From Micromonospora kangleipakensis (lineage in GTDB: Bacteria; Actinomycetota; Actinomycetes; Mycobacteriales; Micromonosporaceae), in NCBI RefSeq assembly GCF_004217615.1, contig NZ_SHLD01000001.1:2604001-2668000 (forward strand): a stretch of DNA of 64,000 nt, given 5' to 3'. Positions 33,745 to 47,926 of this stretch are shown here, piece by piece. A program made the translations under genes and the position numbers. The stretch's first letter is position 1. Every line of letters starts with the position of its first letter. The notes beneath the pieces are model-generated. The model had not been told where the DNA came from. It did no database searches and saw only the letters and a program-made list of their open reading frames with translations.

Positions 33745-34761
33745 TCAGCAGGCGTACGCCTCCAGGCGGTTCGCCCGCTCCGGGGCGCGCAGCTTGAGCA
33801 GGGTCACCTTCTCGATCTGCCGGATCCGCTCCCGGGACAGGCCGAACTCCCGGCCCACCTCGTCGAGGGTGCGCTGCCGGCCGTCGTCCAGGCCGAACCG
33901 GAGCCGGATCACCGCCTGCTCCCGCTGGGAGAGGGTGGCCAGCACGATCCGGACCTCGTTGCGCAGCTCGCCGTTGGCGGCGGCGTCGCCCGGCTCCGCG
34001 CGCGGGTCCACCGCGGCGACGAAGTCACCGAGCGCGCTCTCCCCGTCGTCGCCGACCGCCTGGTCCAGGCTGACCGGCTCCCGGTCGTACGAGATCAGCT
34101 CGATCACCTGGAACTCGGGGACGCCCAGCGCGGCGGCGACCTCGGCGACGGTGGGCTCCCGGCCCAGCGAGACCGACAGTTCCCGGCGGGCCCGGACCAT
34201 CCGGTTGACCTGCTCGACCATGTGCACCGGGATGCGGATGGTGCGGGCCTGGTCGGCCATGGCGCGGGTGATGGCCTGGCGGATCCACCAGGTGGCGTAG
34301 GTGGAGAACTTGTAGCCCTTGGTGTAGTCGAACTTCTCGACCGCGCGGATCAGGCCGAGGTTGCCCTCCTGGATCAGGTCCAGGAAGGCCATGCCGCGAC
34401 CGGTGTACCGCTTGGCGATGCTCACCACCAGCCGCAGGTTCGCCTCCAGCAGGTGGTTCTTGGCGGCGCGGCCCTCCGCCACGATCAGCGCCAGGTCGGC
34501 CCGCAGTTCGACGGAGACCGGGGTGCAGGTGGAGAGCTTCTCCTCGGCGAAGAGGCCGGCCTCGATCCGCTTGCTGAGCTCGACCTCCTGCGCGGCGGTG
34601 AGCAGCTTGGTGCGGCCGATGCCGTTCAGGTACGCCCGGACCAGGTCGGTGGAGACGCCGCGCTCGTCGGTGGCGTCCAGATCGGTCAGGGTGTCGGGGC
34701 CGGGCTCGGCGTCGACGGTGGCAGCCGGGCGGGTCTGGTGCTCGATCATCTGAAGGGCCAT
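33745..34761 (-). CDS. sigB: Principal-like sigma factor SigB (group 2 sigma-70)
   Basis: The 338-residue protein lacks region 1.1 but has region 1.2 ([20 protein letters not shown]), region 2 ([20 protein letters not shown]), region 3 ([20 protein letters not shown]) and region 4 ([20 protein letters not shown]). This matches mycobacterial SigB, a general stress and stationary-phase sigma factor. The ATG at 34761 has GGGGAGAG upstream. Its region 2 is identical to that of SigA, in DNA as well as protein, over 68 codons. It is divergent from spo0M with a palindromic element between. Confidence 0.95.
34213..34416. repeat. 204-bp block identical to 46784-46987 (sigB copy)
   Basis: This stretch, encoding sigma region 2 from [14 protein letters not shown] to IRIPVHMVE, matches the primary sigma gene base for base. 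Divergence starts abruptly at both ends. The identity includes every synonymous position. Confidence 0.95.
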
Positions 34762-34881
34762 CTCTGTCTCTCCCCGTGTCCTTCGTGCCGCGTACCGGAT
34801 TCCGTACCGCGTGCCGGCGCGGTGGTGCCGGTGAGAACAGCTTGGCGGTCGGGGCGTGAAACGGGAGTGAGGCGATCGGGG

Positions 34882-34919
34882 AACCGACAGCAATACCGAC
34901 GGAACGTCGGGTGTCGGTT
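34882..34919. promoter_or_regulatory. Nested palindrome between sigB and spo0M
   Basis: Outer arms AACCGACA (34882-34889) and TGTCGGTT (34912-34919) enclose CCGACG (34896-34901) GAA CGTCGG (34905-34910). The site lies about 70 bp before spo0M and 120 bp before sigB, so one protein bound here could control both divergent genes. Confidence 0.5.
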
Positions 34920-34987
34920 GCCCGACCCGGTTACCGTGCCAGCGGCCGGCCACCGGGGCCCGGCAGCACAGGCGATCGGAGGACGTG

Positions 34988-35776
34988 GTGGTCTTCAAGC
35001 GGCTCATGCAGGCGATGGGTGTGGGTGGCCCCTCGGTGGAGACGGTGCTGGCCGACCCGAACTGCCGCCCGGGTGGGCACCTGGAGGGCCGGATCCAGGT
35101 GGTCGGCGGCGACCACGGGGTGGACGTCTCCTATGTGGCCCTCGGCCTGATGACCCGGGTCGAGGTGGAGAGCGGGGACTCCGATTACGACACCAACCAG
35201 GAGTTCGGCCGCCGTCAGGTCACCGGGCCGTTCCGGCTGGAGGCGGGGCAGCGGTACGACATCCCGTTCCGGTTCGACGTGCCGTGGGAGACGCCGCTGA
35301 CCGACCTGTACGGCCAGCACCTGCACGGGATGACGATGGGGCTGCGTACCGAGCTGGAGGTGGCCCGGGCGGTCGACTCCGGGGACCTGGACCCGGTGGC
35401 GGTGCACCCGCTGCCGGCCCAGGAGCGGCTGCTGGAGGCGCTGCTGCGGCTGGGCTTCCGGTTCGCCCGGGCCGACGTGGAGCGCGGGCACATCTACGGC
35501 GTACGGCAGAGCCTGCCGTTCTACCAGGAGATCGAGTTCCACCCCGCGCCGCAGTACGCCCGCGCGATCAACCAGCTGGAGGTCACCTTCGTCACCGATC
35601 CGCAGCAGGTGCAGGTGGTGCTGGAGATCGACAGGCGGGGCGGCCTCTTCACCGAGGGCCGCGACGCCTTCGGCCGCTTCACGGTCGACCACGCCACGGT
35701 CGACCGTACGGACTGGACCGCCCAGCTCGACGGCTGGCTCCGCCAGTCCATCCAGCGCCGCGGCCTCTTCTCCTGA
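34988..35776 (+). CDS. spo0M: Spo0M/SpoOM family sporulation-control protein
   Basis: The 262-residue protein has an arrestin-like beta-sandwich N-terminal domain (residues 1-130; [40 protein letters not shown]). A C-terminal domain follows with [20 protein letters not shown], both typical of Spo0M. In Bacillus this protein modulates sporulation and division; the role in actinobacteria is not settled. The GTG at 34988 is preferred to the GTG at 34985 because GGAGG (34978-34982) is then five bases away. Divergence from sigB suggests stress-linked control. Confidence 0.9.
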
Positions 35777-35801
35777 CCACCCCCGCGCGCGTCAGCCGCG
35801 T

Positions 35802-45701: not shown

Positions 45702-45779
45702 CCCACCCACCCCAGCGGACCCGGCCGGCCCGCACCGTCCCGCTCCGGCCGTCCGCGCTGAGATGGGCAGCGCACGAAA

Positions 45780-45818
45780 AGCCGGCCGGAGGCTCCCCGT
45801 GGGGGCCTCCGGCCGGCT
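45780..45818. terminator. Bidirectional terminator between the helicase and DUF7455 genes
   Basis: AGCCGGCCGGAGGC (45780-45793) pairs with GCCTCCGGCCGGCT (45805-45818); CCCC/GGGG inside can extend the stem. It separates converging genes. Confidence 0.8.
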
Positions 45819-45837
45819 ATGTCGTGGTTGTGCGGTT

Positions 45838-46071
45838 TCAGTTCGCCATCAGATCGGCGCCACGCCAGCTGAACTCGGGGTCCGTCGCGTACCGCACGGT
45901 GATCTTCACGAGATCCTCCGCGTACTTGTTCGCGTGGTGCCCACAGAACACCAGCTCGCTCCCACCCGCCAGAGTGATCCGGAGCTTGCCGGCAGCATTG
46001 CAGCGGTCGCACCGTTCATCGGCGGCTGGGGGAGCCACCGTCTCGGGCGGCGGCGTGAGGGTCGGGGTCAT
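45838..46071 (-). CDS. DUF7455 family small protein
   Basis: The 77-residue protein carries CDRCNAAGKLRITLAGGSEL followed by VFCGHHANKYAEDL, a likely zinc-binding C-x2-C plus C-x2-H arrangement. Actinobacteria keep this gene beside the principal sigma genes (Rv2708c in M. tuberculosis). Function unknown. The ATG at 46071 has GAGGAGGAAGG upstream; the longer reading adds a Cys-rich, unlike N-terminus. Confidence 0.88.
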   Translation of the reverse strand: MTPTLTPPPETVAPPAADERCDRCNAAGKLRITLAGGSELVFCGHHANKYAEDLVKITVRYATDPEFSWRGADLMAN

Positions 46072-46318
46072 CGCCTTCCTCCTCTGGTCGTCACCGATGA
46101 ACACTCTCTTCGGTCGTTGCTCACCTATCGTGCAACATCCTTGTCGGGCCCTGCCTTCCCTGTGTGCCCGCGGGGGACCGAGGTCACACATGGCGTGGAG
46201 ACAGTGTGCCGTGCACCAAGGGTGCCACGTCAACGATCACAAACGGGCAACCGACCGATCACCATCGAGTGTTGTACGGCTGGTGATCAAAGCGACACGA
46301 CTTGTTGACGTGAATGGG

Positions 46319-47926
46319 TCAGTCCAGGTAGTCGCGGAGTACCTGGGAGCGCGACGGGTGCCGCAACTTGGACATGGTCTTGGACTCGATCTGCCGGATG
46401 CGTTCCCGGGTCACGCCGTACACCTGGCCGATCTCGTCCAGGGTACGCGGCTGGCCGTCGGTCAGGCCGAAGCGCAGGCGTACCACGCCCGCCTCACGCT
46501 CGGAGAGCGTCTGCAGCACCTGCTGGAGCTGGTCCTGCAGCAGCGAGAACGAGACCGCGTCGACCGCGACCACGGCCTCCGAATCCTCGATGAAGTCGCC
46601 GAGCTGGCTGTCGCCCTCGTCACCGATGGTCTGGTCGAGCGAGATGGGCTCCCGGGCGTACTGCTGGATCTCCAGCACCTTCTCCGGTGTGATGTCCATC
46701 TCCTTGGCCAGCTCCTCCGGGGTGGGCTCGCGGCCCAGGTCCTGGAGCAGCTCGCGCTGGATCCGGCCGAGCTTGTTGATCACCTCGACCATGTGCACCG
46801 GGATGCGGATGGTGCGGGCCTGGTCGGCCATGGCGCGGGTGATGGCCTGGCGGATCCACCAGGTGGCGTAGGTGGAGAACTTGTAGCCCTTGGTGTAGTC
46901 GAACTTCTCGACCGCGCGGATCAGGCCGAGGTTGCCCTCCTGGATCAGGTCCAGGAAGGCCATGCCGCGACCGGTGTACCGCTTGGCCAGCGAGACGACC
47001 AGCCGGAGGTTCGCCTCCAGCAGGTGGTTCTTGGCGCGCTCGCCGTCGCGGGAGATCCAGCCCAGGTCGCGCTGCATCTCGCGGGTGAGCTTCTCCTCAC
47101 CCTCCTCGGCCGCGCGCAGCCGCTCGGCGGCGTAGAGGCCGGCCTCGATCCGCTTGGCGAGCTCGACCTCCTGCTCGGCGTTGAGCAGCGGCACCTTGCC
47201 GATCTGCTTCAGGTACGCCCGGACGGAGTCGGCGGAGGCGGTCAGCTCGGCGTCCCGGCGCGCCTGCTTCAGCGCCTCGGACTCCTCGTCGTCCCACTCG
47301 AAGTCGTTGTCGGTCGCGGAGGCGGCGGCGTCGGTCTCGGCGGCCTGGGTCAGCGCGGCCGGCTCCTCGACCACCACGTCCTCGATCGCGGCGGCGAGCT
47401 CCTCCGGGTCGATCTCACCCTCGGCGCCCTCACCCTTGGCGCCCGCCTTGGTCGACTTGGCGGCGGTCTTCGCGGCCACGGTCGCCTTGGTGGCCCGGGT
47501 CGCCTTGGTGGCCTTGGCCGGCGCGGCGGCCTTGGCCGCCACCTCGGCGGTGGTGCCGGCGGCCTTGCGCGCGGTCGCCTTCCGCGGGGCGGGGGCCGGG
47601 GCCTCGTCGGCGGCGGGCGCCTGCTTCGGGGCGGGCGCGGCGGCCTTCTTGGTGGTCTTGGCGGTGGTGGCCCGGGACGCCGGCGTGGCGGAGCGGGCGG
47701 CGGCCACCCGGCGGCGGGTGCTGGCGGAGCCGTCCACGACCACCGTCACGCCCGCCTCGGAGAGCGCGCGCAGGATCTTCTTGGCCTGGGCCGGGGTCAC
47801 CTCAGCGGACTCGACAGTGCGCGCGAGCTGGGCCGACGTGAGCTGGCCGCCGGCGCTCTGCGCGTGGGCGATCAGGGTGTCGGTGAGCGAGCGAACGTCG
47901 GCGCCGTTCTGGCGGGGTTCTGTCAC
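46319..47926 (-). CDS. sigA: Primary RNA polymerase sigma factor (SigA/HrdB)
   Basis: This is the essential housekeeping sigma-70. The 535-residue protein has an N-terminal region-1.1-like module (residues 10-70; [20 protein letters not shown]). A long Ala/Lys/Thr-rich linker (75-200) precedes an acidic stretch. Region 1.2 is [20 protein letters not shown]; regions 2-3 come next, and region 4 ends [20 protein letters not shown] and [17 protein letters not shown]. The GTG at 47926 has GGAAGG upstream. Residues around region 2 are encoded by DNA identical to sigB. The linker is repetitive ([20 protein letters not shown]). Confidence 0.96.
46784..46987. repeat. 204-bp block identical to 34213-34416 (sigA copy)
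   Basis: Second copy of the region-2 block. The bases just outside differ on both sides (C against G before it, C against G after it), and the flanking proteins are clearly diverged. Confidence 0.95.

What the first reader, a model, noticed from the sequence alone, without database searches (positions are those of the whole stretch)
34213..46987. 204-bp identical tract shared by sigB and the primary sigma gene
Bases 34213-34416 (sigB) and 46784-46987 (sigA) are identical at every position, including all synonymous sites, over 68 codons of sigma region 2. The paralogues diverge immediately on both sides. Strong protein conservation cannot remove every silent difference, so recent gene conversion or strong nucleotide-level constraint is implied. 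It would also keep the two sigma factors' -10 recognition the same.
Basis: partly seen in the sequence, partly recalled or inferred. Interest (0 to 1): 0.7.

Follow-up and report, generated by a model that had tools for sequence, protein, structure and literature searches.

The report
Two sigma genes sharing one domain
In this group of soil bacteria the main and the secondary RNA-polymerase sigma factor genes keep copying one short domain between them, so the part that reads and opens promoters stays the same while the rest of the two genes drifts apart.

Summary
Confirmed exactly: window 34213-34416 (sigB) and 46784-46987 (sigA) match at 204 of 204 bases, 68 in-frame codons. It is not a one-off. 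In 110 sigA/sigB pairs (74 of the genus including this genome, 36 of other genera of the family) the two genes of one genome share silent variants inside the tract: in the genus, divergence is 0.045 against 0.151 with partners shuffled (0 of 10,000), while their flanks show nothing (0.305 against 0.305). Fourteen genomes have 204/204 identity, with fourteen different sequences. Holding sigA as one clade is rejected for the tract (AU p 3e-7); the flanks give that clade support 100. This is recurrent, domain-limited gene conversion, mainly sigA to sigB as far as tested, bounded by residues that differ between the genes. Some genera lack it, and of 34 genomes from other families of the order only one shows it clearly. 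Nucleotide-level constraint is rejected. Gene conversion is a known process; this single-domain form between primary and secondary sigma factors was not met in nine paper searches, of which four lists were capped.

The parts
34213..34416 (-). homogenised tract in sigB (68 codons, most of sigma region 2 plus the linker to region 3)
   Evidence: 204/204 identical to 46784-46987; within-genome excess identity in 110 genomes
46784..46987 (-). homogenised tract in sigA
33745..34761 (-). sigB, group 2 sigma factor (probable start ATG at 34761, my reading; the ORF runs to 35007)
   Evidence: ORF; NCBIfam NF005920 SigB 530.6 bits, cut-off 464; Pfam r1.2, r2, r3, r4
46319..47926 (-). sigA, primary sigma factor (probable start GTG at 47926, my reading; the ORF runs to 48499)
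   Evidence: ORF; NCBIfam NF004560 810.2 bits, cut-off 711; Pfam; tract 68/68 identical to M. tuberculosis SigA chain 5uh5_F
34417..34419 (-). 5' boundary codon in sigB (Ile); sigA has Leu at 46988-46990
   Evidence: the two genes have different residues here in 74 of 74 genus genomes
34210..34212 (-). 3' boundary codon in sigB (Gln); sigA has Val at 46781-46783
   Evidence: the two genes have different residues here in 74 of 74 genus genomes
34321..34323 (-). tract codon 31 in sigB (Thr here), the position where sigB of relatives is often Ala
   Evidence: Ala in 26 of 74 genus genomes; 10 parsimony changes in sigB against 0 in sigA over 110

Best explanation
The tract is a zone of continuing concerted evolution. 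Homologous recombination between the two same-strand genes (12.6 kb apart here) copies region 2 from one gene into the other without exchanging the flanks, mainly from sigA into sigB. SHOWN: genome-specific silent variants are shared by the two genes inside the tract only; different identical sequences arose repeatedly; sigB of most of the family carries sigA-type residues where sigB of other families of the order does not. INFERRED: (1) an early sigA-to-sigB copy in an ancestor of most of the family erased the sigB-specific region 2 residues and made a near-perfect repeat; (2) that repeat meets the homology needed for frequent non-crossover conversion, so it maintains itself; (3) the tract ends where the proteins begin to differ by residues each sigma factor needs, through heterology, selection or both; (4) crossovers, which would delete the genes in between, are removed by selection. 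Consequence (inferred): both sigma factors keep one shared surface for core binding, -10 reading and promoter melting, and differ mainly through regions 1, 3 and 4.
For:: genus within-genome tract divergence 0.045 against shuffled 0.151 (sd 0.005, 0 of 10,000 at or below); flank 0.305 against 0.305 (4,671 of 10,000). In the 100 of 110 genomes whose nearest relative has flank divergence over 0.05, own sigA-sigB is closer than sigA-sigB across to that relative in 91, tied in 1, farther in 8; it is closer even than the same gene of that relative in 80, tied in 1, farther in 19; e.g. Arg45 0.99 within against 0.50 between, Ala24 0.92 against 0.48; 14 identical pairs, 14 different sequences (1-13 differences), so at least 13 copying events barring parallel mutation. 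(genus, 62 tract and 106 flank codons): changes in sigA and sigB coincide in the tract (joint/sum 0.683; three shuffles 0.905-0.922; flank 0.941). AU p 3e-7 against a sigA clade in the tract; identity falls near the 5' end of the tract (and near the 3' end in other genera), as expected if copying must stop within homology. Direction: L118, whose six nearest relatives by flanks all have Ala31 in sigB, has Thr31 and 0 differences from its own sigA; 77 codon cases take the relatives' sigA state, 39 the sigB state, 2 neither.
Against: The direction tally counts related genomes and edge codons several times, and faster drift in sigB could mimic part of it. In genus g4 both genes carry Phe34, elsewhere in the order the sigB-type residue, so copying from sigB to sigA or parallel change also occurs. 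8 of 100 genomes go the other way in the nearest-relative test, 19 of 100 against the same gene. In the other genera the flanks also show some within-genome excess (0.350 against 0.387, 0 of 10,000), which I ascribe to codon usage differing between genera; the tract excess there is larger (0.092 against 0.218). Some sigA and sigB of different genomes are also identical (minimum 0 differences). No strain-level data or experiment was available; no conversion event was observed directly.
Confidence: 0.95

Rival explanations
1. Nucleotide-level constraint: an RNA structure, antisense product or codon programme keeps the same bases in both genes.
For: The tract is somewhat more conserved than the flanks between species (sigA-sigA codon identity 0.860 against 0.813 upstream and 0.799 downstream in the genus, 78-pair set).
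Against: The bases are not the same across species: at many variable sites silent codons match about half the time or less between species but 0.7-1.0 within a genome. The fourteen perfectly identical pairs carry fourteen different sequences. Parsimony changes per codon in the tract (sigA 3.97, sigB 4.44) are about 70% of the flank values (5.65, 6.24).
Confidence: 0.02
2. Shared genomic codon preference in two strongly conserved genes produces identity without copying.
For: GC3 of the aligned core is 0.97 and 0.99 here, so chance matches are common; the single-genome probability is only about 1e-5 by site-specific frequencies. In the other genera flanks show a small excess too.
Against: In the genus the same genes show no within-genome excess outside the tract. 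Among 34 order genomes of other families, many with equal GC3, the longest identical run in the tract is 70 bases except in G286 (165).
Confidence: 0.02
3. sigB was re-created by duplication of sigA (or gained by transfer) in each lineage, so the genes are young copies.
For: A young copy of sigA does exist in one distant genome (G370, flank codon identity 0.98).
Against: Flank trees put all sigA on one side against all sigB (support 1.0; 100), and position is held: same strand in 109 of 110 pairs, median distance 13.2 kb (pairs were chosen for lying within 20 kb).
Confidence: 0.01
4. Assembly artefact: repeat collapse copied one tract onto the other.
For: Exact repeats can be mis-resolved in short-read assemblies; no reads were available here.
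Against: The pattern recurs over 110 genomes with different sequences, many of them one-contig. Most pairs keep one or more differences. This genome is one contig of 7.27 Mb.
Confidence: 0.01
5. The conversion is real but driven by selection rather than self-sustaining: sigB with the sigA promoter-reading domain is favoured and rare conversions are picked out.
For: The sigA tract protein is unchanged in 74 of 74 genus genomes, and sigB differs from it only by T31A (26), Y34F (4) and F10V (1); L118 has lost a sigB substitution of its relatives.
Against: Most shared variants are silent, which selection on the protein would not see; several genera keep an open sigB frame without the signal (g11, g13, g14, g18, g40).
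Confidence: 0.3

Closest known systems
RF1-RF2 gene conversion of domain 3 in Bacteroidia and Chloroflexi (PMC4530459; start of abstract, passages)
   Same: Old paralogues with partly shared, partly separate functions exchange only the domain whose function is common to both; direction can differ between cases.
   Different: Two cases traced at the amino-acid level there; here copying is recurrent and visible at silent sites in tens of species, with edges resolved to a few codons.
Long-lasting recurrent concerted evolution of 26 prokaryotic genes (PMC6053082; start of abstract, passages)
   Same: Paralogues in one genome more alike than orthologues across species, over long times, by recurrent conversion.
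   [quoted passage not shown] here conversion covers 68 codons while the rest of the genes diverged.
tuf gene conversion in Salmonella (PMC5485169; abstract and conclusion section)
   Different: Near-identical whole genes with one function, not two diverged sigma factors sharing one domain.
Mycobacterial SigA/SigB (PMC6529629; title and start of abstract, one passage)
   Same: Same kind of paralogue pair; the paper states that residues for -10 and -35 recognition are identical between the two and that they co-transcribe housekeeping genes.
   Different: In the 34 order genomes outside this family, tract proteins differ at 3-13 of 68 residues, and silent codons show no clear conversion signal except in G286.

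Membership tests
Concerted evolution by gene conversion | Paralogues within a genome more alike than orthologues between species | tested here: met
   80 of 100 genomes in the nearest-relative test, 1 tied, 19 not
Concerted evolution by gene conversion | Tract phylogeny conflicts with flank phylogeny | tested here: met
   Sister pairs 53 of 110 in the tract, 0 of 110 in flanks; AU p 3e-7 (61 of 110 genomes: this one, 24 of the genus drawn at random, all 36 of other genera; 3 sets of identical rows left free)
Concerted evolution by gene conversion | Repeated events giving lineage-specific shared sequences | tested here: met
   14 identical pairs, 14 sequences; joint change ratio 0.683 against 0.941 in flanks
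Concerted evolution by gene conversion | Non-reciprocal transfer observed directly, RecA dependence | not testable with these tools
   needs marked alleles in a living strain
Long-lasting concerted evolution of whole genes (tuf, rRNA type) | Identity over nearly the full gene | tested here: not met
   Only 68 codons; flank codon identity in this genome 84 of 113 same-residue codons
Group 1 sigma factor (SigA/HrdB/RpoD) | Curated NCBIfam model above cut-off; regions 1.2, 2, 3 and 4 | tested here: met
   NF004560 810.2 bits against 711; Pfam
Group 2 sigma factor SigB of actinobacteria | NF005920 above cut-off, no region 1.1 | tested here: met
   530.6 against 464 bits for sigB, though sigA also passes this subfamily model at 486.4; no PF03979 hit in sigB, one below cut-off in sigA
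Nucleotide-level conserved element | Same bases in different species | tested here: not met

The most novel reading that the evidence does not exclude
A self-sustaining conversion trap: one early copying of sigA region 2 into sigB erased sigB's own promoter-reading residues and created a repeat good enough to keep recombining. Since then the two sigma factors of most of the family have been locked to one common region 2 and can specialise only outside it. Codon 31 (Thr to Ala in sigB) would be the one regular escape, held against conversion.
Probability: 0.45. Interest if true: 0.75.

Novelty: new variant of a known kind. Interest (0 to 1): 0.6.

Why it matters
In this family the sequence of sigma region 2 often reports the genome rather than the gene, so trees built on that region would mislead. 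It is also a natural system in which the limits of recombination between diverged genes can be read at near single-codon resolution, in a genome that by family search has a NucS-type gene and no MutS domain V match. It makes a question testable: does gene conversion hold back the functional separation of a primary and a secondary sigma factor?

Tried and rejected
Nucleotide constraint, codon bias, young duplication and assembly error were tested or weighed and rejected (see rivals). The plus-strand ORFs over both tracts were taken as high-GC artefacts without a test. A third paralogue of this genome (6.787 Mb, L340) shows no conversion with sigA: 39 of 48 same-residue codons, longest identical run 45 nt. 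Direction at silent sites is only suggestive. Alignment of untrimmed ORFs failed, and too strict anchors lost rows; extraction was redone. Searches's averages come from 78 pairs only.

Rows dropped. Searches covered 264 genomes (G000-G263); I fetched regions from 120 of them plus the window, chosen for having the genes within about 20 kb on one contig, so this is not a random sample. Of these 121, 110 gave pairs. Nine other-genus regions held no sigB (L154-L156, L158, L165, L167, L168, L179, L180) and say nothing either way. L085 (sigB with an in-frame stop) and L172 were lost to the anchor pattern and looked at afterwards: L085 keeps the signal (59 of 61 same-residue codons), L172 does not (34 of 54). 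In the order and class set, genomes were taken from those with two or more listed matches; L326 was dropped for lack of an anchor, and G330 had only one gene fetched. One search counted only codons with at least 60 same-residue genus genomes.

Papers. Nine searches; some searches showed only the top 20 of 62, 25 of 2,111, 10 of 31 and 15 of 58. No title or abstract start shown reports conversion between sigma factor genes. The single hits were not opened. Subscription papers are mostly not held, and supplements could not be read.
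Full report
CHECK OF THE OBSERVATION. The two 204-base stretches are identical at every base, in frame, on the minus strand, and stop at mismatches on both sides. The two ORFs are a primary sigma factor (NCBIfam NF004560, 810.2 bits, cut-off 711) and a SigB-type group 2 sigma factor (NF005920, 530.6 bits, cut-off 464). By Pfam the tract covers most of region 2 and ends on the codon where region 3 begins in both proteins. By recalled E. coli sigma70 numbering the tract is residues 391-458, containing W433/W434 and ending with H455 to E458 of the extended -10 reader; the spacing and the alignment ends listed agree, but I did not align that protein residue by residue. 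The 68 residues are the same in a solved M. tuberculosis SigA chain.

WHERE IT COMES FROM. The window lies at 2,604,001-2,668,000 of a one-contig, 7.27-Mb genome. I fetched regions from 120 relatives and obtained 110 sigA/sigB pairs counting the window: 74 of the genus and 36 of other genera in the family. The genes lie on the same strand in 109 of 110, at a median distance of 13.2 kb.

THE CENTRAL TEST. If the bases were constrained, sigA of one species should match sigB of another as well as its own. It does not. In the genus, within-genome synonymous-codon divergence in the tract is 0.045; with partners shuffled it is 0.151 (sd 0.005), and 0 of 10,000 shuffles reach the observed value. In the flanks of the same genes the two numbers are 0.305 and 0.305. 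In the other genera the tract figures are 0.092 and 0.218; their flanks also show a small excess (0.350 against 0.387, 0 of 10,000), which I ascribe to codon usage differing between genera. Codon by codon, clear contrasts run from codon 2 to codon 63: Arg45 matches in 0.99 of genus genomes within and 0.50 between, Ala47 0.99 and 0.56, Leu13 0.97 and 0.54, Val63 0.92 and 0.73. Outside the tract, among codons with at least 60 same-residue genomes, the largest differences are +0.20 (codon 88), +0.17 (codon -9), -0.25 (codon -3) and -0.15 (codon 190), the rest near zero.

PHYLOGENY. In FastTree trees the tract puts sigA and sigB of the same genome together as sister tips in 33 of 74 genus genomes and 53 of 110 overall; flank trees do so in none and separate the genes completely. 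With IQ-TREE on 61 of the 110 genomes, the best tract tree with sigA as one clade is 379 log units worse (AU p 3e-7), while the flank tree already has that clade at support 100. On the flank tree, changes in sigA and sigB coincide in the tract (joint to summed changes 0.683) but not in the flanks (0.941) or with shuffled partners (0.905-0.922, three shuffles).

RECURRENCE. Fourteen genus genomes have all 204 bases identical, with fourteen different sequences that differ from each other by 1-13 bases. Each new two-copy sequence needs a copying event, so at least 13 events, barring parallel mutation. Three or fewer differences are found in 47 of 74 genus and 20 of 36 other-genus genomes. Within-genome identity is high in the middle and lower near the 5' end (0.79 at codons 5-9 in the genus) and, in other genera, at the 3' end (0.72 at codons 65-69, no better than between genomes), as expected if copying must stop within homologous sequence; [quoted passage not shown]

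DIRECTION. The sigA tract protein is the same in 74 of 74 genus genomes, whereas sigB has T31A in 26, Y34F in 4 and F10V in 1. Outside the family, the majority sigB of the order differs from sigA at residues 9, 10, 34, 56, 61 and 65; in most of this family sigB has the sigA-type residues there. L118, whose six nearest relatives by flanks all carry Ala31 in sigB, has Thr31 and no difference from its own sigA. At silent and other sites, 77 cases follow the relatives' sigA state, 39 the sigB state and 2 neither; these cases are not independent. In genus g4, sigA and sigB share Phe34, the sigB-type residue elsewhere, so the reverse direction or parallel change also occurs.

EXTENT. Within-genome codon identity in the tract is 0.90 or more (rounded) in 92 of 110 genomes. 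It is low in g11, g13, g14 and g18 and 0.81 in one of two g31 genomes, and 34 of 54 codons in the dropped L172 of g40. In one Micromonospora subclade it is mostly 0.81-0.92, mostly with Ala31 in sigB. Of 34 genomes from other families of the order, 33 have tract identity 0.57-0.86 with sigA and sigB differing at 5-13 of 68 residues. The exception is G286 of family f11 (0.95, a 165-base identical run, flank 0.51), with edges at other residues (codons 10-64). The 33 others average a tract excess of 0.037 (se 0.010) against a flank excess of 0.022 (se 0.007), so weak or rare conversion elsewhere is not excluded; G310 has a 70-base run. In 16 genomes of other orders of the class, the only pair above 0.9 was a young whole-gene copy (G370). 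These genomes were picked for having two or more listed matches and are not a random sample.

MECHANISM. Shown: repeated, lineage-specific homogenisation limited to the tract. Inferred: RecA-type non-crossover conversion between direct repeats, begun by an early sigA-to-sigB copy that removed the sigB-specific residues and then kept going because it maintains the homology it needs. The edges coincide with residues that differ between the genes in 74 of 74 genus genomes (codons -1 and 68), so either heterology or selection stops the tract. The genome has one NucS-type match and no match to the MutS domain V model; whether that matters is untested. Codon 31 is a puzzle: it changed 10 times in sigB and never in sigA on the flank tree of 110, and in L077 and L095 it is the only codon that still differs in the tract.

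WHAT IS KNOWN. Gene conversion of one shared domain between old paralogues is known for release factors (PMC4530459, passages), and long-lasting concerted evolution of whole genes is known (PMC6053082, passages). In mycobacteria the two sigma factors co-transcribe housekeeping genes and share promoter-reading residues (PMC6529629, listing and one passage). Nine searches, four of them with capped lists, showed no report of conversion between sigma factor genes; most subscription papers are not held.

VERDICT. What is new, as far as these searches go, is the scale and the sharpness: a family-wide, continuing, single-domain exchange between the primary and the secondary sigma factor.

Noticed in passing
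L264 (genome G286, family f11): An apparently independent case of the same phenomenon in another family of the order: tract codons 10-64, 59 of 62 same-residue codons identical, flank 0.51, GC3 0.66. Only two genomes of that family are held, and only this one has a second match at 1e-90.
   Followed up: partly
sigB codon 31 in relatives (e.g. L077, L095): Thr/Ala at this codon changes ten times in sigB and never in sigA, and can be the only remaining difference in the tract, as if held against conversion.
   Followed up: partly
L085 (genome G012), sigB: sigB has an in-frame stop near the start of the tract while the frame is open on both sides and the tract still resembles sigA: a pseudogene or a sequencing error.
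   Followed up: no
L066 (genome G134), sigB: The sigB frame is cut short (175 codons from the anchor window against 295 here), so its flank figures rest on fewer codons.
   Followed up: no
genomes G161, G198, G217, G232 (genus g12): Two long sigA-like matches of similar score in each, far apart or on different contigs: perhaps a duplicated primary sigma factor in that genus.
   Followed up: no
codon -3 (Val), just 5' of the tract: Within-genome codon match is lower than between genomes (0.22 against 0.47 in the genus), opposite to the tract; unexplained.
   Followed up: no
window 33248-33697, 35921-36982 and 40954-43548, minus strand: Neighbouring ORFs: a glyoxalase-family protein, a D-Tyr-tRNA deacylase domain and a PfkB sugar kinase domain (Pfam); ORF starts were not refined.
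   Followed up: no
G000 6,787,383-6,788,270 (L340): A third, more distant sigma paralogue that shows no sign of conversion with sigA (39 of 48 same-residue codons).
   Followed up: partly
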